Below, one piece after another: positions 928 to 62,195 of a stretch of 64,000 bases of DNA. Source of the stretch: Phorcus lineatus. Its lineage: Eukaryota; Mollusca; Gastropoda; Trochida; Trochidae. Each line of letters starts with the position of its first letter. Positions within the stretch are counted from its first letter, which is position 1. The stretch lies in assembly GCA_921293015.1 (NCBI GenBank), contig OV121092.1, positions 13,460,001 to 13,524,000 of the forward strand, read 5' to 3'. A program made the position numbers and the translations under genes. Below the pieces are notes generated by a model that was not told where the DNA came from, did no database searches, and was given only the letters and a program-made list of their open reading frames with translations.

Positions 928-992
928 TGAATAAAAAGGTGGGGTATGCTGGGTAATCGTACAGTGCGGACGTGGCAATGTGAGCTCTCGAA

Positions 993-2024
993 ATGGGAAT
1001 AGAAATTCAACAATATAGAGCCAAAATAGGCTCGTTTAATCAACCAAATAAGTCCAAAAAACTTATGTACGGCTTTCGGATAGAAAGAAAGTGTGTATCT
1101 TTGTCATTGAGACTTTGTTTGCTCCTATTCACATTGCTCGTGGTGAACGGATCAGTTGAGTCTAACCCGGGGCCCGGCCCGACGACACGTCAGCAAGTTT
1201 TAACTCAATCAGATTCGGGAGCTATCGGAGTACAGTGTACTAATGAAGACCTGATGAAAGCTCTAATCAATATCCAAGGTAAAATACAAACTCTTAGTGA
1301 CAATTTTCTCGGCCTCGACAACAAAGTCACCAAAATGGCGACAGACATCAACATCGAAATGCAAGAGCTACGCGTTGAAAATGCAGAGATGAAACAACAA
1401 ATACAGTCCCTACAAGATCACGTGGATGATATACAGTCTCGATCAAGACGAAATAACCTTATTTTCCATGGTATAGAGGGAGATCGTCGAGAAAATTGGG
1501 AGGCGACAGAGTCAAAACTTCGAGAATTTCTAAAAGATCGCCTAAAATTGACTAACTCAGAAGATGTCCTTATAGCGAGGGCACACCGGTTATCGCAGAT
1601 GAAACAGAATTCGCCAATAATAGCCAACTTTGTTATCACCAAAGACAGAAATGAAATTCTACACAAAGCGAAGGAAATATCAAGGACAGAAGACCGCTCT
1701 GTTCGCGTGACTGAGGATCTCACAAGACAAGTGCGAGAGGATCGCCGTGCACTCTCACAACTATTCACCGAAGCGAAGGATGCGGGAAAAAACCCCAAAA
1801 TCCGTCACAACAAGCTCATTATCGACAGAAAAGTGTATCAGCGAAATCGAGTGACCAACGAAGTGATATGTGTTTCAGATTCGCAAGGATTACAATCAGG
1901 ATCAGTAGAATCAAGCAGTCAGGAAAACATCAACAAAGGAGGTCAACAAGACACGTGTTCTTTGTTTGGACCCGGAAACACAGGGGAGACAACTCTAAAT
2001 CCTCAACGTAACAAAAACAAATGA
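993..2024 (+). CDS. LINE ORF1 protein with an N-terminal 2A-like signal
   Basis: This 343-aa protein is probably the nucleic-acid chaperone that coats the element RNA in the RNP. Residues 35-52 are hydrophobic and lead directly into a 2A-like motif at 53-61 ending NPGP, which would make ribosomes skip a bond between G60 and P61. After this come a heptad-rich coiled coil (about 85-150), an RRM-like domain beginning SRRNNLIFHGI (151-161), and a C-terminal domain with DLTRQVREDRRAL (242-254), as in L1 ORF1p (Transposase_22 family). The ATG at 993 gives the longest frame; M25 is a possible alternative that would leave a 36-aa signal-plus-2A leader. The stop is TGA at 2022-2024, in the same frame as ORF2. 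The assignment as LINE ORF1 is firm; skipping activity is inferred. Confidence 0.88.
   Translation: MGIEIQQYRAKIGSFNQPNKSKKLMYGFRIERKCVSLSLRLCLLLFTLLVVNGSVESNPGPGPTTRQQVLTQSDSGAIGVQCTNEDLMKALINIQGKIQTLSDNFLGLDNKVTKMATDINIEMQELRVENAEMKQQIQSLQDHVDDIQSRSRRNNLIFHGIEGDRRENWEATESKLREFLKDRLKLTNSEDVLIARAHRLSQMKQNSPIIANFVITKDRNEILHKAKEISRTEDRSVRVTEDLTRQVREDRRALSQLFTEAKDAGKNPKIRHNKLIIDRKVYQRNRVTNEVICVSDSQGLQSGSVESSSQENINKGGQQDTCSLFGPGNTGETTLNPQRNKNK
1149..1175 (+). other. 2A-like ribosome-skipping motif, variant S-V-E-S-N-P-G-P
   Basis: The nine residues GSVESNPGP follow a leucine-rich hydrophobic stretch. The usual 2A consensus is D-V/I-E-x-N-P-G-P; here the first residue is S, not D, and all others fit. 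2A-like sequences at the N-terminus of ORF1 are known in APE-type LINEs of sea urchin and molluscs, and some act as both a secretion signal and a skipping site. Whether the D-to-S form still works cannot be read from the sequence. Confidence 0.75.
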
Positions 2025-5000
2025 GAATGTGGCCGTGGGCTCCTTCAGCTAAGTATCCTAACTTGGAATATAGAAGGACTGTACAAATATTCATCATCAG
2101 AAAACATAAAGCAATTTCTCTCAAGGTATGATATTGTTGGGTTATGTGAATCGTTTGTAAAGAAAACTGAGGACTTTAACGATTTTATAGTGGGCTACCA
2201 TACCTTGAATTGTGTGCGAGCGAAGGAAAAAAAACATGGTCGTTATAGCGGCGGTGTGACTGTCCTCGTTCGAAATTATTTAACTGATAATAACATAGTA
2301 GAACGCATTTTCTGCACATTTGAAAATTGTGTGATATTATTAGTTAAAACATCAATGTTAGGTTTGAGAAAGGACACAATCATGATATTTGTTTACATTT
2401 CGCCAGAAAACTCACCAATTTATCAAAATAGTGATCTGGATGGCATTGATGTGCTCTCATCTTATCTTGAAACTATTCTTTGTGAATATACAGACCATGA
2501 AATAATTCTCACTGGAGATTTTAATGCCAGAATGAAAGATTACCTTGATTACATACCAAGTGACTCACTAGATCACATCATGCAGGATTCTGATAGTTAC
2601 CCATCTGATGACTTTAACTTGCCAAGATCCACTAAAGACAACAAAACTTACAATACTTTTGGAAAGAAACTAGCTGATATGTGCTGCACATTTGGCATTC
2701 ACACACTCAATGGAAGGTTATACAATGACAAAGAAGGCAATTTCACTTGCTTTACACATAATGGGGCTAGCCTAGTGGATTATTTCATAGCTAGTACACA
2801 GCTGTTTCCATACATATCTGATTTTGGTGTTCATCATATGGATCATTCAAATCACTTTCCTTTATACTGCTCCTTATCATTTGATAATGATTTACATGAA
2901 TGCCAGGTCAAGGATAGCTGTGAGGGGCAATCAAATCAAGAGGTATTGTGTGACAATCATATCAGTAAGGATAGTTTCACTTGGTGGAAATTTGTGTGGC
3001 CAACCACTGGTAGCAGTCAGGAGATATTTTGTAGTAATTTCCATGAGAAATTCTCAGAAATGAGTGATGAAATCTACAAATTAATTGATGAAAATTTATC
3101 TCTGGCTGTTAATAAACTCACTGTTTTGTATCAGGCAGCTGCACAACAATCAAAAAGAAAATATGGAAAACTAAATTCTAGAAACACAACTGTATCTCAA
3201 CAACCCCCCTGGTGGGATCATGAACTTGAAACCTTAAAAAGCAGGAAATATGCCGCACTCCGTGCACATAGACACCATGGAGGTGATTTCAGTAATTTTA
3301 GAACAATGCGCTCACTCTTCAAAAAAACATTCGCAACAAAAAAATCTATTTATCAAAACAAACAGAAGGAAATACTTATTCAATCTAGAGATAACCCTAA
3401 ACTTTTCTGGAGTACTCTAAAATCATCAAGAGCCTATCAATCAATACCACAAATAACAGTCCAACAATGGGGTGATTATTTCAAAAGTTTGCTTTCTACT
3501 AATTCTACAACTAACTATGATGCCATTATCAGTGAAATAGAAGATGAGATGACAATGACAGGTTCAGATGACCCACAGAATATCAATCTTCCATTTACCA
3601 ATGATGAAATCTCTAAATGCCTTCAAGACCTCAGAAATAACAAGTCTCCAGGGCCCAATGGAATTGTGAATGAATTAGTCAAATCCACTAAGAATTATAT
3701 TACTCCAGTGCTGACTAAATTATTTAATAATATTTTATCAACAGGAGTATTCCCTGAAGAATGGGGAAAAAGTATCATATGTCCTATTCACAAAACAGGA
3801 AACTTGAACATTACTGATAATTATAGAGGTATTTCCCTTATTGACTCATTTTGTAAAATTTTGACAAGCCTTTTGGATAAAAGATTACAATATTGGTGTG
3901 ACAACAATGATATAATTAATGAATGCCAAGCTGGTTTCAGGCCTGGATACTCAACCATTGATCACATTTTCAGCCTGCAAGCAATAGCACAGAAGTATCT
4001 CACTAAAACAAAGGGTAGATTTTACTGTATCTTCGTTGACTTTTCAAAGGCGTTTGATAGAGTGGACCATGATGTTCTTTTGAAAAGTTTGAGGAAAGTG
4101 GGCCTCAAAGGGAACTTTATAAAACTTCTCACATCAATGTATTCAAATCTCTCAGCATGTGTTAGATCATCAACTGGTTTGTCTGAATATTTCAAATGTA
4201 ACATTGGAACCCGTCAGGGATGTGTTTTGAGCCCAAAATTGTTTATAATTTACTTAAATGAACTCATATGCCAACTGGAGCAGAAAGGAGGAGAAGGAAT
4301 ATTTATAACAACAGATTTTCCAAAGATATATGCCCTGTTGTATGCAGATGATTTGTCTTCAATAGCTGACAGTGTTTTACAACTACAGAAGAAAATAAAT
4401 GTGATAGAACAATTCTGTGATTCTACAGGCATGAAGGTTAATCTAAATAAAACGAAAGTGATGGTATTCAGGAGAGGGGGGACTTTAAGGAATAATGAAA
4501 GATGGACGTATAAGGGTAATAAACTTGAAGTTGTCAACTTTTATAGATATCTTGGGATAGTATTTACCCCAAAACTTTCATGGAGTAAAACATTCAGCTG
4601 TCTGACTGCACAAGCTAAGAAAGCTATATTTAACATCATGTCTTTCCAAAAGAAATTTGGAAAATTGTGTTATGAAGATATTTTTAAGGTGTTTGATAGT
4701 ATAATCGTTCCAATATTATGTTACGGATCTGAGATATGGGGGACTTCATATAACAAGCTGATTGAAAGTGTACAGGCATCATTTTGTAAAAGATTTCTCA
4801 GACTGACTAAAAATACTCCAAACAACATGGCACTAGGGGAGTGTGGCAGGCTCCCCCTTCAATATAACTATATGACAAGAGCAATTAAGTACTGGACAAG
4901 ATTAATTCACCTTGGAAACAACAGACTACCTCATCAAGCATATAATATGCTAAAATCTCTTGATGAAGTGGAAAGAAATACATGGGCTACCTCTGTAAAG

Positions 5001-5543
5001 AATATCTTGTTCCGCCTTGGGTTTGGAGGGGTTTGGATACAACAAAATATTGGTGACATCAATCTATTCCTAAACAACTTTAAGCTTAGACTCTCTGACA
5101 ATCTTTACCAAGACTGGCACGCCTCACTGGACTCTTCCTCAAAATGTGAATATTATCATCAGTATAAGTCTCTACTCAATGTTGAATCATACATAAGTAA
5201 TGACATTCCGCAATATTTAAAACATTTCATATCAAAGTTTAGATGTAATAATTTTAGAATGAAAGTTGAAATTGGAAGACACAGTAATATACCCCATGAA
5301 GAAAGATACTGTGATTATTGTTTAAAGAATGATTTAAAAACTGTAGAAAATGAATATCATGTGCTTTTGAAATGTGAAAAATACTCTCTACTCAGGAAAA
5401 AATATCTTCCAGCTCGATTCACGGACTATCCAACAGTTAACAAATTCACTGACTTGATGAAGACTACCGATAAAGAAACAATTTACAAACTTGGACTATA
5501 TTTATCTAAAGTGTACAATTTTAAAGCGTCTACAGAAACTTAA
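2025..5543 (+). CDS. LINE ORF2: endonuclease, reverse transcriptase, CCHC motif
   Basis: This open frame of 1172 codons nicks target DNA and primes reverse transcription from it. The AP-endonuclease domain begins with LSILTWNIEGL (Asn at 2067) and holds TGDFNAR (2511-2531), LVDY and HSNHFPL (2844-2864). Reverse transcriptase motifs follow: NNKSPGPNG near 3640, NYRGISL, QAGFRPGYST, FVDFSKAFD (about 4032-4058), GTRQGC and the catalytic YADD (4341-4352). A C-terminal knuckle (C-x2-C ... H-x4-C, 5310-5375) is present. There is no ATG upstream of the endonuclease start: the first in-frame ATG is 2355, inside the domain. Expression probably needs readthrough of the TGA at 2022 or reinitiation. In the last endonuclease motif SDH is SNH. 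No frameshift was found. Confidence 0.9.
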   Translation, partial: ECGRGLLQLSILTWNIEGLYKYSSSENIKQFLSRYDIVGLCESFVKKTEDFNDFIVGYHTLNCVRAKEKKHGRYSGGVTVLVRNYLTDNNIVERIFCTFENCVILLVKTSMLGLRKDTIMIFVYISPENSPIYQNSDLDGIDVLSSYLETILCEYTDHEIILTGDFNARMKDYLDYIPSDSLDHIMQDSDSYPSDDFNLPRSTKDNKTYNTFGKKLADMCCTFGIHTLNGRLYNDKEGNFTCFTHNGASLVDYFIASTQLFPYISDFGVHHMDHSNHFPLYCSLSFDNDLHECQVKDSCEGQSNQEVLCDNHISKDSFTWWKFVWPTTGSSQEIFCSNFHEKFSEMSDEIYKLIDENLSLAVNKLTVLYQAAAQQSKRKYGKLNSRNTTVSQQPPWWDHELETLKSRKYAALRAHRHHGGDFSNFRTMRSLFKKTFATKKSIYQNKQKEILIQSRDNPKLFWSTLKSSRAYQSIPQITVQQWGDYFKSLLSTNSTTNYDAIISEIEDEMTMTGSDDPQNINLPFTNDEISKCLQDLRNNKSPGPNGIVNELVKSTKNYITPVLTKLFNNILSTGVFPEEWGKSIICPIHKTGNLNITDNYRGISLIDSFCKILTSLLDKRLQYWCDNNDIINECQAGFRPGYSTIDHIFSLQAIAQKYLTKTKGRFYCIFVDFSKAFDRVDHDVLLKSLRKVGLKGNFIKLLTSMYSNLSACVRSSTGLSEYFKCNIGTRQGCVLSPKLFIIYLNELICQLEQKGGEGIFITTDFPKIYALLYADDLSSIADSVLQLQKKINVIEQFCDSTGMKVNLNKTKVMVFRRGGTLRNNERWTYKGNKLEVVNFYRYLGIVFTPKLSWSKTFSCLTAQAKKAIFNIMSFQKKFGKLCYEDIFKVFDSIIVPILCYGSEIWGTSYNKLIESVQASFCKRFLRLTKNTPNNMALGECGRLPLQYNYMTRAIKYWTRLIHLGNNRLPHQAYNMLKSLDEVERNTWATSVKNILFRLGFGGVWIQQNIGDINLFLNNFKLRLSDNLYQDWHASLDSSSKCEYYHQYKSLLNVESYISNDIPQYLKHFISKFRCNNFRMKVEIGRHSNIPHEERYCDYCLKNDLKTVENEYHVLLKCEKYSLLRKKYLPARFTDYPTVNKFTDLMKTTDKETIYKLGLYLSKVYNFKASTET

Positions 5544-31267: not shown

Positions 31268-31439
31268 TTAAAGAGGTACTCCGTGATTTTCATAACATAT
31301 TATTTACCTTCTATACGAACCTTAATGCCACATGTGGTGATATAAAATCAAAACATCTTAACTTCTCATGTCCAAAAGACATTTATTACTCTCCCGTTGA
31401 AGATATCGCTGTTTAATAAATCTACAATGTTATTACACA

Positions 31440-31927
31440 TTGTGTAATAACATCACGCGCACTGATGTCGGAACTATTTTCACTCGGTCACATGACCAAG
31501 GTAACGTGATCAAAACAATTATGAAACGCATGGCGTCCAATGCGAAGTTTCCAAACGGTTGTCCAATCACTCAGCCAGGAAATACATGGTCCAAACTTTG
31601 TCTGACAATAACATTCCGCCAAATCAAATTATGCAAATCAGTGGCCATAAGAAGTTACAAAGCATAAATAACTTTTCACAAATTTCTGAAACACAGCATC
31701 GTGAAATCAGTGAAATGATCAACCGGCCAGCTGATGCGGGGTGTACTGTCAATGTTGACGTTCGCCGAGATCGCGCCGCTGACACTGTTTCAAACGTGCA
31801 GCACAATAAACAATTCTGTCATTCATGTCAATTTCAATTCAGCTTAATATGTTCCAAATTATCAGAATTCTCGTCCAAACTTGTGTGCGAGGTGACCACG
31901 CTCTTTAAGGCGATTAACTCTCAGTAA
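31440..31927 (+). pseudogene. Crypton-type tyrosine recombinase, C-terminal part, frameshifted
   Basis: The frame starting at 31440 covers the upstream part (TRSHDQGNVIKTIMKRMASN). Near 31555-31560 the reading moves to the next frame, which carries NHSARKYMVQTLSDNNIPPN and QIMQISGHKKLQSINNFSQI. The order H-x2-R ... GH ... N-N-F/Y matches the catalytic C-terminal core of Crypton/DUF3504-type recombinases. The expected nucleophile tyrosine position in INNF is phenylalanine. The N-terminal domains are absent. Frameshift, truncation and the F all argue that it is dead. Family recognition rests on motif memory only. Confidence 0.65.
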
Positions 31928-32419
31928 CTTTGGAAGTTACATCGCATTCGAAAATAATCCAACAAATGGAAAACAATCAATTGATAAGATATTCCTCACA
32001 ATGTTTCTTTATTAAAGGCGTTCTGTTTGTTGTTAAAATCTTCTTTGTCTGTTGTTATTTCCCCATTGCTTAATAATTTTTTAAAAATAAAAATAAATTA
32101 CATCGGCGATCATAATGTATTCATACGCTTGACCTAGTTTTGCTGACGTAATGCACTCATCAGTTTTAAGTATTCGAGTTTCGATTTCTTTGCCTGGTTA
32201 GGTGTCGTAGGCTATCAGTCTTATAAAAATTCCAAATTAAATACAATTCAAAGCTTTCTCTTTTTTGTGTAAAAGATAGGTAGAGCCGATGTTGATCATT
32301 ATAATGAAATGAATTCACGAATACTCACGACACAGTTGTGGCTGCATGATGGCCTCCATGTACAAATTATAAGCCTTTTTCCAGAATTTTTTTGCTGATG
32401 TTGGGCGAGTAATAAATAA

Positions 32420-32559
32420 AATACTAAACTCCGTTCCGTGCAATAACATATTTATGAAACTCGTGAATGGTTTGGTATCTAACTCGCTTTCGCTCGTTAG
32501 ATACCAAACCATTCACTCGTTTCATAAATATGTTATTACACGGAACGTCGTTTAGTATT
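32420..32559. repeat. Foldback repeat with 64-bp arms
   Basis: The left arm AATACTAAAC...GGTATCTAAC (32420-32483) pairs with 32496-32559 with few mismatches around a 12-base loop. It sits at the right end of the Crypton-like insertion. A hairpin of similar build is at 61824-61987. Confidence 0.85.
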
Positions 32560-32924
32560 CTCTATTTATATGACAAATACTGGTTCTCCATGAACATCTA
32601 AAAACAGCCTTATCAATGCGCAGAGAGATAGATATCACGTCCAATAAACATGCACACAAGTTATATAACCTAAAAACGCTATCAACTTCTTACTGCCCTC
32701 TTGGCTGTTTTAGATAAGTCTCCAAAATTACGTTTGGCTATTTGACGCGCGCCACTGTCTGGTTTTCGATAATAATTGCTACGTTCTACCTTAATATTGT
32801 CACTGTAAAAACCTATAAGCTTTAAAATGTGTATTTTGGTAACAGTCGATATTTAGCGATCAAATGACACCATTGATTAAGTTTGGCATATATGACTCCA
32901 ACAACTCCCGGAGTGGCTCTTTAT

Positions 32925-40468: not shown

Positions 40469-41120
40469 GAACTCAGGGCCTAGATTTTCAAAACTCTCTT
40501 AATGCTAAGATATTCGTAAGCCAATGTTAATGTATGGTACTTACGACTATCTTAGGACTAGAAAAGCTTGTAAAATTTAAGCCCTAATGGATATGAGAAC
40601 TTAATGTTTTCGATTTTTTGCCTGAAGGCGTTGCATTGTTGCCAGTGAAATTAGTAATTATAATGAAAGTGTGTGCATTACTATCGAATTCAGGGCCCAG
40701 ATTTTCAAAACTCTCTTAGTGCTAAGATATTCGTAAGCCAATGTTAATGTATGGTACTTACGAATATCTTAAGGCTAGGAAAGCTTGGAAAATTTAAGCC
40801 CTAATGGATATGAGAACTAAATGTTTTCGATTTTTTGCCTGAAGGCGTTGCATTGTTGCCAGTGAAATTAGTAATTATAATGAAAGTGTGTGCATTACTA
40901 TCGAATTCAGGGCCCAGATTTTCAAAACTCTCTTAGTGCTAAGATATTCGTAAGCCAATGTTAATGTATGGTACTTACGAATATCTTAAGGCTAGGAAAG
41001 CTTGGAAAATTTAAGCCCTAATGGATATGAGAACTAAATGTTTTCGATTTTTTGCCTGAAGGCGTTGGTTGCATTGTTGCCAGTGACATTAGTAATTATA
41101 ATGAAAGTGTGTGCTTTACT
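40469..41120. repeat. Tandem triplication of a 217-bp unit containing MITE family C
   Basis: Copies start at 40469, 40686 and 40903 (exact 217-bp spacing). The second and third are almost identical apart from a 4-base insertion (GGTT) late in the third; the first has more differences. Each unit contains one palindromic family C element (TAAGATATTCGTAAG ... CTTACGAATATCTTA) plus a linker with TTGCCTGAAGGCGTTG. Confidence 0.93.
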
Positions 41121-52815: not shown

Positions 52816-53020
52816 ACTATGCCGCTAAGGTATTATTTTACGAATGCTTCATCTTATTGACATTTCTGGTGCTCGTGCCGCTATGTACGTTCACCCACTA
52901 AAGAATAGTTACTGTCGACTTGAAAATATCATAGAAATGATCATAGTAATGGGACAGTGGTTCCTAAAATATGATAAAATATTTTCGTTTTATTTGCCAA
53001 TGATGAAAATGTTCCCTTAA

Positions 53021-53485
53021 AGAGCCACTCCATGAGTTGTTGTAGTCATGTATGACAAACTTAATCAATGGTGTCATTTGATCACACAGTATCGACTGTT
53101 ACCAAAAAGACACATTTTAAAGCTTATTGTTCTCTTACAGTGACAATATGAAGGTAGAATGTCGCAATTATGATCGAAAACCAGACAGTGGCGCGCGTCA
53201 AATAGTCAAACGTAATTTTGGAAACTTATCTAAAACAGCCAGGAGGGCAGCTAGGAGTTGATAGCGTTTGTAAGGTTATACAACTATCCATGCATATTGG
53301 AAGTGATCTCTATAACTTTGTGCATTAATAATGCTGTTTTTATATTTTCATGGAAAACCAGTTTTGTCATATATATGTCTTTTGGACATGAAAAGTTAAG
53401 ATGTTTTGATTTTATATCACCACATATGACATTTAGGTTCGTATCAACGGTAAATAATTTGTTATTAAAATCACGGAGTGGCTCT
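53021..53485 (-). mobile_element. MITE family A, intact copy (465 bp)
   Basis: AGAGCCACTCCATGA and, in reverse complement, AGAGCCACTCCGTGA are 15-bp inverted ends with one mismatch. TTAA flanks both sides (53017-53020, 53486-53489). The inside is non-coding and matches 31272-31386 plus 32564-32920 in reverse. TTAA duplication is typical of piggyBac-type transposases, but the ends do not begin CCC, so the family is left open. Confidence 0.8.
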
Positions 53486-53743
53486 TTAAATTTAAACCTA
53501 GTTACAGTCTTTACCCCAATGTTCCTACATTGTATTAAGAGGTTAGTGGGGGGTTGGGGTGACTTATGATTTGTTATCGTTGTATGTCAATTTTCTTTTC
53601 ATTTTTTAATGTCCTATTAACTACAGAAGCCAATGTCTCCTTGATATTTTTTACATGTTAAATTAGGTCATGAAAAAGTTTGTTCGGGAAGGGGAAAAGG
53701 GCTAAGCCAGCCCTGCTGTAACGGCCTGGCAACTGAATAAACA

Positions 53744-54222: not shown

Positions 54223-56330
54223 AACGAAACGTTATATTTTTCAATTGAATAAATGACTATTCAAAATATAAATATAACGTCAAATCTTTCCAACAAGGAT
54301 ATAGATTATATCTAATTAGATTTTTGACAGTTTCTTGCGTAACATAGTGAGCTAGTCAACTGTAACGGCAAGCAATAAAAACAGTCACAGCTATTTATGT
54401 ACATATGAGTTTAACATTTAATGTTGCTACAATGCATTTATCGAATAGGTATAAATACCTAATATATAATCTATATCCTTGTTGGCATTATAATCAAAAT
54501 ATTATGTATGTATAAAGAGGTATAGAATAAATACATAGAAACATTCTGAAGACCATTACATTTGAACTTGACAACAATGCCACGATTTTTTAAATATTAG
54601 GATATCTGAAATATTATGCTTTCAAGGTTTATTTCCCTAAGGTGCGAAGAAACAGGACACATAAGTTAAAAATGGTATTCATCTTCTATTAATTTCAAGT
54701 GAGAAATATTACATATTCTTCCTTCACGAGCTTTGTTGACATAGCGCTCCATCCCAATGCACAGATCATGAAACGTTTAAGGGCCATTCGGAATTTTTGT
54801 AACTTTTGTTAAATAATCCTCCATGATCATTTCAGATTTAATCATTCTATAATAGAAGCACTTATTTGTTAGAGTCATCGATGCTGTCTATGTCTCCAAA
54901 TATATATCTTTCAAATTTTCTAATCGCAAAGGTGTATCGTTATTGCTCAAAATCCTCCTTTTTGACGGATATAGATGTTTAATGATTTGATTTAAATTAT
55001 ATGTGTCGTTCCTGTATCAGCACACGTGTTTAATGACTCACATATTGTTTGAAACGTGTTTAATGACTGACATATTGTTGAAAATACGTGGAACACCAAC
55101 TCAACCACACTATATCAGTATGTTCTTACAAGAATGCTAACTTAGTGGAATATGTATTTTCAGCACGTAAAATGATAGTCGTTATCTATGTTTAATATCA
55201 ACTCTAATAACCCGAGCCCAAGCCAGTTCTTGGTCCCCTATACCAGACCCGTCACCACACCATCTCGCCCACACTCTAGCTCAGCTGCGGGACAGACTAG
55301 CCTTGCTGGGGCGTCCTTAATTAACACCAACGTCCTGCATGTTGCATTGAACTGTCCCAATGTCAGTTTGGGTTGTAACTATTAAGAATAAGGGGACAAG
55401 GAAATGAGGTAATGAATTGACTTTATTCGTCTTTCAACAGTGATATTTTTATAGATAAAACTTATATGATAAGCAACATTAGTAGATCTGCCTGATGTGT
55501 GAGGTCGTTGTTTTCTTGACTTTTTAGAATTTATTGACAATAATAAAGATATAGAGTTTGTTTATCAAGGATTGGCACAAACAATAGTTAAAGGCACTAG
55601 GCTGAATTCTTTTATTTTTATGCTCGCAGTTTCTTTCTATTCAAATATTTTTCAGAACTATGTAGAATTAAAAAATCTCTTGATTAACCCCACAAAAATC
55701 AGAAATCAGCTGACCACCAGAACATTCACATGCCTTAATCACCAGCTATAATATATTGTATAAACAAAATATCCAGTATACTAAAGTGGGTTGATATCGG
55801 TCCTTTCAATTCTCGTTAACCACTATCAGAAAAATTACATCTGGTAAAAACACTGACAGGTTGACAAGTGGTTTATGGTTTGTGGCACCAGCGGCCAATG
55901 TTGGAATGTGACGCTGGAGAGATCACAACTTAACAAAATCTATATACATCTTCCACTATGTAAATATATGTTGAAATAACAACAACCAACAAATAAGTAT
56001 TATTTATCAAGTTATTAAAAGGGCGGTTTTGATGTTTACTATAACCATTCAACGTGAAATTAATTTACTCCTATGACACGTCCAAAAGAATGAAATACTT
56101 TGATATTTGCATTGATTATGTAAATTTAAGGAGAAAAACGATACGCCCGAATCAAGTTGATCGGTAATTTGATGCACGAGTTGTGTGAAATGCATACCAG
56201 AAGGGTAGTATATGGGTACGTCCTCTTATTGATATGGCAAGATGCCAAAAATCGCAGCAAGTTGTGTTACCATGTCGGACTACCCTACTGATAAGGGTTT
56301 GAGGTGGACTAGTCTAATTGTCATTTTGGT
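54223..56330. other. Non-coding stretch with one GC-rich open patch
   Basis: No supported gene. At 55188-55385 a locally GC-rich, Pro/Ser/Thr-rich frame (SNNPSPSQFLVPYTRPVTTP) is open on the plus strand; it may be an exon or remnant but has no clear splice signals. ACGTGTTTAATGACT repeats twice near 55024-55064. Confidence 0.3.
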
Positions 56331-59560: not shown

Positions 59561-60660
59561 ATTAAAAAATGCATTGGTATATAGGTAAAATTAAACATAC
59601 ATCCTGCTTAAAAAGGCTTATGAGACACTATAGCGTTTAGGACGGATAAATGGGACAAAATAATATAGAAAAAGTATAAAACATGATATAGAAAGTTAAA
59701 AAAGTTGTAACCATTTAAGAAAAGAAAATTCTCCTTATAAACATGTCATTAATAGAAGTGGCTAAGATAGCTAAAGTAGATGGATCTGATGACATGAAAG
59801 CATTTAGAAGTTGCAACTCGTTTTCAAAAGCGGTAATATTTAACAGAGATAAAAACTTGAATCCAAATCATGGTACAAATGGCAATTTAAAAGAAAGTGA
59901 ACTTCATTCTCTATATTTGGGCAGAGAGGGCAAATTCTCTCAGGCAGGGGGGTGGGGGGCTTGTTGTATCGTCCTGTTTCAATATGTAGAGCAAGGTTAC
60001 CGCAACGTAATTTAGTGAGATTTCTTCAAAAGACGTCATATTACAGAGAAAAAAGGTCACTATAGAAACAATTTATTTATCACATACCCATGAAATCTTA
60101 CGATAGTAATACGTAATGAAATACAATGAATTGCGTATTGCATTCCTCAATCCGTATTGTACTCCGTATTGCACTTCTCACGGAACTACTTTCTCAGCGA
60201 TAGAGGTGTCATGTCAGCTATTATTAGAATTTAGGTCAGGGGAAACCCGTATGCAAACATATGCAATAATGCAAACAAACGCATGTTAACTTCAACTTTT
60301 CCTCACAAACAAATTAAATAAATATCCCTCCAAAACGTAGACGTGCCATCATTGATAGTGATTCAGATTCTGAGTGAGTACAACTGTTATTTCCTCTCGT
60401 TGAACTGTTCTGTAACGTCATCTTTCCGTGTTCACACATTCACGTTTGAATACGTTGTGAACGAACTTTGCCGAATGTCAACGAATGTTTTAAGTTATGA
60501 ATGTTTATATTGTATTCGAATGAAATGTTGATATACATGTAAGTGATATGCACCATTTTAAACATGTGAACAAATATCTTGCGTCTGTTTTCTTTCAAAT
60601 ATTCATCACAGTTTTGTGTGCACTCTATTGCCATGTGACGTGATAGGGGTGGCGGAGTAA
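59561..60660. other. Non-coding stretch, no gene seen
   Basis: Contains CGTATTGCATT/CGTATTGCACT-type repeats near 60135-60180; no supported gene. Confidence 0.3.
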
Positions 60661-61739
60661 TGTCTTTAGGGTATCGTCCGAAAAGACAGAATTCCCAAAA
60701 AGACAGAGAGCTTAAAACAACACTTTTCATGGTTGACTAATCATGTGTAACATGGGCTCTACCCTTTGGAAATATTGGAACGGCCCAGATAAATAAAGAC
60801 AGAATTCCCAAAAGGATACCATTAAGATACAACAGTTGGGTTTTTTCACTCGATGGATGATAATAACATATAAATAAACTTTATAACATGAAGCACCATT
60901 TTATTCAATTCATATAGGGTCTCTGTTAACACATACATGGGTTATTTTAAAAATTGGAAGCATTTTCTGCCCAATCAAGATTCTTTTGAAATAACTTGTT
61001 TTAAAGGGTTATTTTAGGAAGAAAACAATTATTCTTGTCATTTGGAAAGTTTTGATAAAATCAGCTTTAGGGTCAAAATATTGACAGATTTACACTGTCC
61101 AGAGATGATGGTCATAGAATGTTCACAAAATCTGCATAAATTAACATGATAAAAATATATAATCAAATAATGCTTATACTTAGAGATCATTTATGTTAAC
61201 AGTGCGGTTGATTTTTCATTAACTTAAAAAAACACCCTCTACAATGTGTAACATGTCCTGTAATAGTGATAGGATATGAAATTAAGAGATTCAGCACATT
61301 TTGTAGAAAGAAGACACCGTCAAGTAAGTATGAATTTAATTTGTCAACCTTAATTATCCAAACTGTTACCAATGTATATTGTATAAAACTTATCTAATTT
61401 TTTTCTCAAAAAAAGGTATTTTTTTGCCTAGTAATGGTAGAAGTGGATGGTGTTTCACTTGATATCTTTTAGGAATCATTCATTCAAATCTAGTCTTGCT
61501 TCATAACTGTATAATAGGAAGCCTTTAATACAGCCTATGCCCTAATTCCGAAAGTCTAGATTTGACTGCATACACAATTTATGAGCCCGCAAAAATATAA
61601 TGGATGAAGGTACAGTTAATTATTAAAATATTTCATATTGATACTAGAACATAAGGCGGGTTCTGTCTTTTGGGAATTCTGTCTTTTAGGAATTCTGTCT
61701 TTTGGGAATTCTGTCTTATGGGACTGAATTGTCTTTAGG
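60661..61739. mobile_element. 1.1-kb element with inverted 16-bp repeats at its ends
   Basis: The left end has AAAAGACAGAATTCCC at 60681 and again at 60795. The right end has four tandem copies of its reverse complement (CTGTCTTTTGGGAATT type) from 61661 to 61725. TGTCTTTAGG at 60661-60670 and 61730-61739 could be a 10-bp target duplication, as in Mutator-like elements, but this string also resembles the repeat itself. The inside is non-coding. Confidence 0.5.
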
Positions 61740-61823
61740 TCAAGACAACACGTAAACACTCTTCCGTTTTTGGCTTTATTTTAAGTAAATTAAACGAAAA
61801 AAGGGTATGTGAAGAAGAAAGGG

Positions 61824-61987
61824 TATATAGAACGTCATTCTAGTGCATGTTTTCGTTTGTATTGAACTCGTAGATGTCACAAAGAGCAAAGAAACAACTC
61901 GTATTGAGAACTCGTTGTTTCTTTGCTCTTTGTGACATCAACTCGTTCAATACAAACGATAAATTCACTAGAATGACGTTCTATATA
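61824..61987. repeat. Foldback repeat with arms of about 78 bp
   Basis: TATATAGAACGTCATTCTAG and ATGTCACAAAGAGCAAAGAA in the left arm pair with the right arm almost perfectly around a short loop. Both this hairpin and the one at 32420 carry AACTCG/CGAGT near the loop. Confidence 0.85.
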
Positions 61988-62074
61988 TGTATTAAATGAC
62001 AGTATATAACACATCGAAATGCTTTTTGATATGATTTAGTTAAATTTTATTTAGAAATTGAATGGGTTTTTACT

Positions 62075-62195
62075 GTGTGTTTGCAATGGAAAAGCTACAT
62101 TCAAACCCTTGTGAACCAAGCTAGCCTGCGAGCAGGTTCAGATGAGAGTTTGAATGTAGCTTTTACATTAAAGATTTACATTGCAAACACACAAA
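62075..62195. repeat. Foldback repeat, imperfect
   Basis: TGTGTGTTTGCAATG and AAAAGCTACATTCAAAC at the left are inverted at the right (GTTTGAATGTAGCTTTTACA, CATTGCAAACACACA), with a 14-base insertion in the right arm and a partly paired centre. Confidence 0.75.

What the first reader, a model, noticed from the sequence alone, without database searches (positions are those of the whole stretch)
31268..32924. A MITE caught in the act: Crypton-like insertion defined by comparison with an empty copy
The MITE at 53021-53485 is uninterrupted; the copy here carries 1177 extra bases bounded by ATTTAT, without terminal inverted repeats, and the insert encodes part of a Crypton-type recombinase. Crypton ends are hard to define, so an empty-site comparison within the same 64 kb is unusually informative.
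Basis: partly seen in the sequence, partly recalled or inferred. Interest (0 to 1): 0.72.

Follow-up and report, generated by a model that had tools for sequence, protein, structure and literature searches.

The report
Crypton with folded, self-matching attachment hairpin
A jumping gene found inside another repeat, in what is probably an animal genome, carries beside its 3' end a strictly built DNA hairpin that holds a spare copy of its own joined ends, which suggests that it inserts as a folded single DNA strand, a trick known from bacteria and their phages.

Summary
In detail: a MITE is interrupted by 1183 bp (31383-32565). The insert belongs to a young Crypton family: 14 further near-full-length copies at 95-99% identity; a full-length relative, L049, has an intact 504-codon frame between the same ends. 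The 3' end is a ~140-nt hairpin whose inner arm carries an inverted copy of the circle junction (3' end + core + the first 11-13 nt of the element's own 5' end). Nine lineages of this genome have it. Inner copy and 5' end change together. Seven share one stem plan with three TC/TC internal loops, although helix sequence is down to 24% identical. In a ninth lineage, also in this window (60077-61988), the inner copy predicted the 5' end. Insertions make no target duplication; in 33 of 33 informative cases of 40 read, the 5' end shows element core and the 3' end target core. Best explanation: a folded attachment site used in one-strand exchange, like CTXphi attP or integron attC. The single-stranded intermediate is inferred. 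Only this genome was tested.

The parts
31268..31382 (+). left part of the interrupted MITE
32566..32924 (+). right part of the interrupted MITE
53018..53489 (-). uninterrupted (empty) MITE copy
31383..32565 (+). non-autonomous Crypton insertion, 1183 bp; crossover placed at AT^TTAT at both ends
31383..31395 (+). 5' end TTATTACTCTCCC, the 13 nt that the inner copy repeats (in this copy with one mismatch)
31428..31452 (.). small 5' subterminal palindrome (TGTTATTACAC); not a feature of every lineage
   Evidence: sequence
31559..31732 (+). C-terminal tyrosine recombinase fragment (HSARK and GHK motifs)
32403..32429 (-). inverted copy of the circle junction at the base of the inner hairpin arm
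32420..32559 (.). 3' terminal hairpin; TC/TC internal loops at 32430-31/32548-49, 32461-62/32517-18, 32484-85/32494-95
   Evidence: positions read
32560..32565 (+). 3' end CTCTAT; CTCT faces TT in the inner copy, i.e. 2 extra nt on the outer arm beside the crossover
60077..61988 (+). second Crypton (another lineage), 1912 bp, 5' end predicted from the hairpins of its family
60327..60377 (+). recombinase tail PPKRRRAIIDSDSDSE* of the second Crypton
   Evidence: compared by eye with tails
61825..61988 (.). 3' hairpin of the second Crypton with TC/TC loops

Best explanation
The insert is an internally deleted copy of a Crypton moved by a tyrosine recombinase (YR) made elsewhere in the genome. Shown: its 3' end is a hairpin whose inner arm is an inverted copy of the junction formed when the element's ends are joined, short of 2 nt; this plan recurs across lineages whose sequences have diverged; insertion is a point crossover at AT^TTAT without target duplication. 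Inferred: the moving form is a single-stranded circle, or an extruded cruciform, in which the junction folds back on the inner copy. This makes a duplex recombination site next to a bulge and mismatched loops that mark strand and polarity. The YR exchanges one strand with a target of the type NT^NTAT, and replication finishes the insertion. In excision the same inner copy could pair with both ends and bring them together.
For: (1) Inner copy versus own 5' end: exact 11-13 nt match in 10 of 11 loci (L070 has an early mismatch); other-lineage mean 4.5, maximum 9; of 40320 pairings of 8 lineages only the true one reaches the score. (2) Prediction test: TTATTACATACCC, read from hairpins of the second window family, was then found with at most one mismatch as the 5' end in 4 of 4 places with long flanks (window, L089, L090, L091), and homology between these copies starts there. 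(3) Geometry: in 7 loci of 7 lineages helix B spans 28-29 bp, the cap is 2 bp, and three loops per locus, 21 in all, are TC/TC; the loops lie 17, 47-48 and 71-74 nt from the 3' end (read). Own arms pair 0.98 (B) and 0.90 (C); arms swapped among four distant loci 0.45 and 0.47, among all seven 0.56 and 0.52; 25 of 28 and 19 of 21 pairs show changes on both sides. (4) Point crossover of one polarity: 30 informative cases to 0 among 36 insertions of 8 lineages, plus 3 to 0 among 4 of a ninth. (5) The junction TTCTCT-ATTTAT-5' end is seen between tandem copies (L024; L079 and two siblings). (6) The same layout works in bacteria: CTXphi attP1/attP2 in opposite orientation ~90 bp apart, forked hairpin, one pair of strands exchanged (PMC3089051, passages); integron attC with extrahelical bases (PMC4792948, passages). 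(7) R259, H387, R390, H413 and Y422 are invariant in 6 of 6 aligned YRs (that these are the catalytic ones is from general knowledge of YRs).
Against: No direct evidence of single-stranded DNA. A double-strand exchange with strongly biased resolution would give the same junctions. In the window copy itself the inner copy differs from its 5' end at one base (CTCGCCC against CTCTCCC); L049 matches exactly. L078 keeps one regular loop, the second window family lacks the first loop, L082 has a multiplied palindrome, L077 has two further mismatches. Two of 36 insertions, both in AT repeats, differ from the element at both ends. The 5' ends of L078, L080, L081 and L082 were located with the inner copy, so the match there is not independent; for the L079/L082 family sibling copies then confirmed it. 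Of the 11 loci L067-L077, 3 did not show hairpin plus inner copy. Hairpin arms could also be kept alike by copying or inversion rather than by selection for folding.
Confidence: 0.6

Rival explanations
1. Ordinary double-stranded Crypton circle. The hairpin is a cruciform or protein-binding array that helps the YR assemble, and the inverted junction copy is a second YR-binding site. Both strands are exchanged and the core mismatch is always repaired the same way.
For: A double-stranded circle by analogy with bacteria is the published Crypton model (PMC3212892, section read); tandem copies fit circles.
Against: Does not explain why mismatched TC/TC loops are kept while helix sequences turn over, nor the 30:0 polarity.
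Confidence: 0.22
2. DIRS-like internal complementary region (ICR): the inner copy is a splint that pairs with both ends of a linear single strand so that they can be joined to a circle; the folded site is not itself the recombination substrate.
For: DIRS1-like elements have ICRs near the 3' end that complement both termini and overlap at the circular junction, and insert without target duplication (PMC3266345, passages). The layout here is the same.
Against: The full-length relative L049 is ~2.56 kb with one long forward frame, the YR; nothing seen there could make a linear strand by reverse transcription. The mismatched hairpin is not part of the DIRS passages read.
Confidence: 0.13
3. The hairpin is a replication terminator or strand-transfer signal of a rolling-circle element, as in Helitrons; the YR is a passenger.
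For: 3' hairpin, insertion without target duplication; Helitron2 has hairpins and asymmetric terminal repeats (PMC3627910, passages).
Against: The 4 proteins scanned match YR-type domains and the QRICH1 domain, no rolling-circle initiator; the inner copy spans both ends and the core, which a terminator does not need.
Confidence: 0.03
4. Chance palindrome or recent fold-back duplication in one family.
For: Long palindromes can arise by copying errors.
Against: The plan recurs in nine lineages, with compensatory changes in the seven compared.
Confidence: 0.01

Closest known systems
Crypton DNA transposons, animal group CryptonA (Kojima and Jurka 2011, PMC3212892)
   Same: YR of the DUF3504 type, YR-only element, non-autonomous copies that share the ends.
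   Different: That paper reports no terminal repeats in animal Cryptons (section 8) and has no occurrence of 'hairpin' or 'palindrom' in its main text. Here there is a 3' hairpin with an inverted junction copy.
CTXphi attP1/attP2 folded attachment site (PMC3089051)
   Same: Two inverted core sites (there ~90 bp apart, here ~120) that can pair in one strand to make a recombination site; one-strand exchange.
   Different: A phage that uses host XerC/XerD; here the full-length element encodes its own YR. The single strand is not shown here.
Integron attC hairpins (PMC4792948)
   Same: DNA hairpin with unpaired bases that mark the strand, recognised by a YR.
   Different: Here long stems with regularly spaced TC/TC loops and a full inverted copy of the junction. 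No homology claimed; detailed attC geometry is recalled, not compared.
DIRS1-like retrotransposon ICR (PMC3266345)
   Same: Internal, 3'-located sequence complementary to both termini and overlapping at the circle junction; YR; no target duplication.
   Different: No reverse transcriptase or other long forward frame in L049; no long terminal inverted repeats.

Membership tests
Crypton | Tyrosine recombinase of the Crypton/DUF3504 type with R, HxxR, H, Y | tested here: met
   DUF3504 E 4e-23 to 9.7e-33 and Phage_integrase in 4 of 4 proteins scanned; R259, H387, R390, H413, Y422 invariant in 6 of 6
Crypton | YR is the only long coding frame; no reverse transcriptase | tested here: met
   L049: one 504-codon forward frame in a ~2.56 kb element; three minus-strand frames of 80-101 codons were listed and not examined
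Crypton | Short (4-6 bp) direct repeats at both ends, as in fungal Cryptons | tested here: not met
   3' core positions 3-6 equal the element core in only 4 of 36; PMC3212892 reports none in animal Cryptons either, so this does not exclude membership
Crypton | Circular intermediate | tested here: inconclusive
   Head-to-tail junctions in L024, L079 and two siblings are indirect
Folded single-strand att site (CTXphi/attC type) | Inverted core copies able to pair within one strand | tested here: met
Folded single-strand att site (CTXphi/attC type) | One-strand crossover at a fixed point | tested here: inconclusive
   Junctions fit it, 30:0 and 3:0; biased two-strand exchange is not excluded
Folded single-strand att site (CTXphi/attC type) | Single-stranded DNA substrate | not testable with these tools
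   needs biochemistry
DIRS retrotransposon | ICR complementary to both termini at the circle junction | tested here: met
   definition
DIRS retrotransposon | Reverse transcriptase/RNase H | tested here: not met
   none among frames of L049 of 80 codons or more as judged by length and the YR match; minus-strand frames not scanned

The most novel reading that the evidence does not exclude
These Cryptons integrate as folded single-stranded DNA through a self-complementary attachment hairpin, the first such recombinase transposon in eukaryotes. The inverted junction copy is the ancestral form of the DIRS internal complementary region, and the recombinases behind ZMYM, QRICH1 and KCTD1 began as folded-DNA binders.
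Probability: 0.45. Interest if true: 0.92.

Novelty: new variant of a known kind. Interest (0 to 1): 0.8.

Why it matters
Crypton boundaries have been called difficult to characterize, and their mechanism rests on analogy with bacteria (PMC3212892). The hairpin gives a simple rule: read the inner arm, and it names the other end. In one lineage that prediction was made and then held. It also makes a mechanism testable: whether eukaryotes have a folded single-strand integration route like CTXphi and integrons, how such an element could gain copies, and whether the DIRS junction splint came from Cryptons. Crypton-derived genes are widespread in animals (PMC3212892 abstract), and Eulor5 and Eulor6 repeats of human DNA are classed as Crypton relics (PMC5753468, passages); whether those relics show the same hairpin is untested.

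Tried and rejected
Relatives outside this genome: none found. Viral contigs gave 43 candidate stretches, none confirmed; genome contigs gave 51, of which one confirmed at 23% identity in a Chitinophaga genome. No animal collection other than the window's genome was at hand, so generality is untested.

Empty sites by flank search: the L013 flanks are unique, so they gave none. The concatenated flank queries did not complete. Empty sites therefore rest on the MITE and on satellite units beside L023 (about 75% identical).

5' subterminal hairpins as a general feature: rejected; z below -5 only in L079 and L082 of 9 loci. One loop spacing for all: rejected; L078 and the second window family differ. 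ATTTAT as a target duplication: rejected. Strand preference by folding energy: the bottom strand is more stable in 13 of 13 folded loci, by 0.2 to 5.2 kcal/mol; not used as evidence. That tandem GA.GA pairs are stable is recalled, not tested.

Of loci L067-L077, hairpin plus inner copy was recognised in 8 of 11; L072 showed the 3' end motif only, L071 a weak 3'-motif match only, L073 a 5' end only. L073 also has a different, near-perfect palindrome, not followed up. L078-L082 were picked by intact frame; 5 of 5 show hairpin and inner copy. Structure prediction was not tried, because its stated rule did not list loci of this source.

Literature: searches for Crypton with hairpin (10 papers), palindrome (23 papers, 20 listed), single-stranded DNA (5 papers), mollusc and non-autonomous (3 papers) and Eulor with hairpin (3 papers) listed no paper whose title or abstract start describes such a Crypton hairpin. 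Only listings and the passages or sections cited were read; papers not held were not seen.

Corrections made on checking: loop distances, helix C range, helix B identity range, the Pfam QRICH1 statement, the one-strand row of the membership test, and the mismatch in the window copy's own inner copy.

Full report
The insertion. At 31268-32924 a MITE is split. Its halves match the uninterrupted copy at 53018-53489 and 16 of 16 further copies fetched; the site itself was read in the 53-kb copy and 9 of those 16. The insert occurs elsewhere: 14 further near-full-length matches in one piece at 95-99% identity, and more that are cut or split. Where the ends are present they agree: (T)TTATTACTCTCC at 5', with a few variants at the first base, and GTATTCTCTA at 3'.

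The element. C39 holds L049, which has the same two ends but an intact 504-codon frame where the window copy has only the last part. Four proteins of this group were scanned: all hit DUF3504 and Phage_integrase; three also match the QRICH1 domain, two of those below its cut-off. By sequence the only PDB match of L049 at E up to 1 is QRICH1. Six proteins with open frames are aligned; the other five are 39-58% identical to L049, and R, H, R, H, Y are invariant. PMC3212892 derives DUF3504 from Crypton YRs (abstract). So this is a Crypton, and the window copy is an internally deleted derivative.

The hairpin. The 3' end folds into one long stem. The arms of 14 loci were aligned and 13 folded. L049, L067, L075, L077, L079, L080 and L081 share one plan: base helix of 9-12 bp, TC/TC loop, helix B spanning 28-29 bp, TC/TC loop, helix C of 20-23 bp (17 bp in L077, with two further mismatches), TC/TC loop, 2 bp and a 4-nt cap; all 21 of these loops are TC against TC. 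L078 keeps only the last loop and a 3x3 mismatch; L082 has a multiplied palindrome. Helix B of L079 is 24-34% and of L080 25-43% identical to the others, yet helix B is 96% or more paired within every element. Swapping arms among L049, L079, L080 and L081 drops pairing to 0.45, among all seven to 0.56; 25 of 28 pairs changed on both sides. For helix C the own value is 0.90 (lowest 0.76), swapped 0.47 and 0.52, and 19 of 21 pairs changed.

The junction copy. Just outside the inner arm, the reverse complement reads 3' end + ATTTAT + 5' end of the same element, short of 2 nt (the 2 nt were read by eye). The match to the element's own 5' end is 11-13 nt and stops there in 10 of 11 loci; of 40320 lineage pairings only the true one reaches this score. 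In the window copy itself one base differs. For L078, L080, L081 and L082 the 5' end was located with this match, so those cases are not independent. For the L079/L082 family 10 sibling places were read: the expected 5' boundary was found in 8 and the 3' end in 9; two of these places and L079 itself are head-to-tail with the junction GATTCTCT-ATTTAT-CATCC, or one base from it further out.

A test on a ninth lineage. The window holds another hairpin at 61825-61988, of a family with 40 places scored of 519 candidates. In 20 copies the inner copy reads GACGTTCT-ATATTTATTACATACCC with small variation; the outer end reads GACGTTCTATATAT, again with few variants, and then differs from copy to copy. 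This predicts the 5' end TTATTACATACCC. With up to one mismatch it was then found in the window (60077) and in L089, L090 and L091, 4 of 4 places with long flanks, and the four copies become homologous there. The window copy is 1912 bp and still has a recombinase tail.

Insertion chemistry. In 36 insertions of 8 lineages with both ends read, core positions 3-6 equal the element in 34 at the 5' end and in 4 at the 3' end; 30 are informative in one direction, none in the other, 4 are uninformative, and 2, both in AT repeats, differ at both ends. Left out of that count: L024 (tandem), L025 and L027 (no 5' end by that script; L027 is the locus of L049), L029 and L030 (5' end not recognised; duplicates of L031), the tandem places and two places there without a 5' end. 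For L078, L080, L081 and L082 the 5' end used is the one found with the inner copy. The ninth lineage adds 3 informative of 4. The L023 insertion sits in a satellite array whose empty units place the crossover at AT^TTAT without duplication. The target looks like NT^NTAT: T at position 2 (5' side) in 29 of 36; T at 4, A at 5 and T at 6 (3' side) in 33, 24 and 28.

Interpretation. A conventional two-strand YR exchange over a 6-8 bp core leaves mismatches that can resolve either way; only one outcome is seen. The simplest reading is that one strand is exchanged, as for CTXphi and integron cassettes, whose sites are folded in one strand. Conserved mismatches and a 2-nt bulge by the crossover would mark the strand, the part that extrahelical bases play in attC. 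DIRS elements offer a second precedent, an internal region complementary to both termini at the junction. Both readings need a single strand, which sequence cannot show. Biased two-strand resolution remains possible.

Limits. One genome; nine lineages judged by eye, not by a tree. Counts of copies and family sizes are lower bounds, because the search scores only its best candidates.

Noticed in passing
window 60077-61988: A second Crypton of another lineage with the same kind of 3' hairpin; about 1 kb of its middle (60680-61720) is bounded by inverted AAAAGACAGAATTCCC-like ends and looks like a nested TIR element.
   Followed up: partly
window 984-5543: Two adjacent long frames (346 and 1172 aa, stop to stop) with endonuclease/reverse transcriptase-like sequence by eye and an NPGP motif near the start of the first: a non-LTR retrotransposon, possibly with a 2A-like peptide (motif recalled).
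   Followed up: no
L079, L108, L114: Head-to-tail Crypton copies: at three places of the L079 family a 5' end directly follows another copy's 3' end.
   Followed up: partly
L029, L030, L031 (C15:46.64-46.79 Mb): Three copies of what looks like one insertion in duplicated DNA, each with about 500 bp of other sequence inside the element.
   Followed up: partly
L073:315-473: Near-perfect palindrome with ~65-bp arms and an end resembling TTCTTATAAAT, unlike the TC/TC hairpins.
   Followed up: no
window 40506-40988, 54290-54485, 62074-62193: Further inverted repeats of unknown origin.
   Followed up: no
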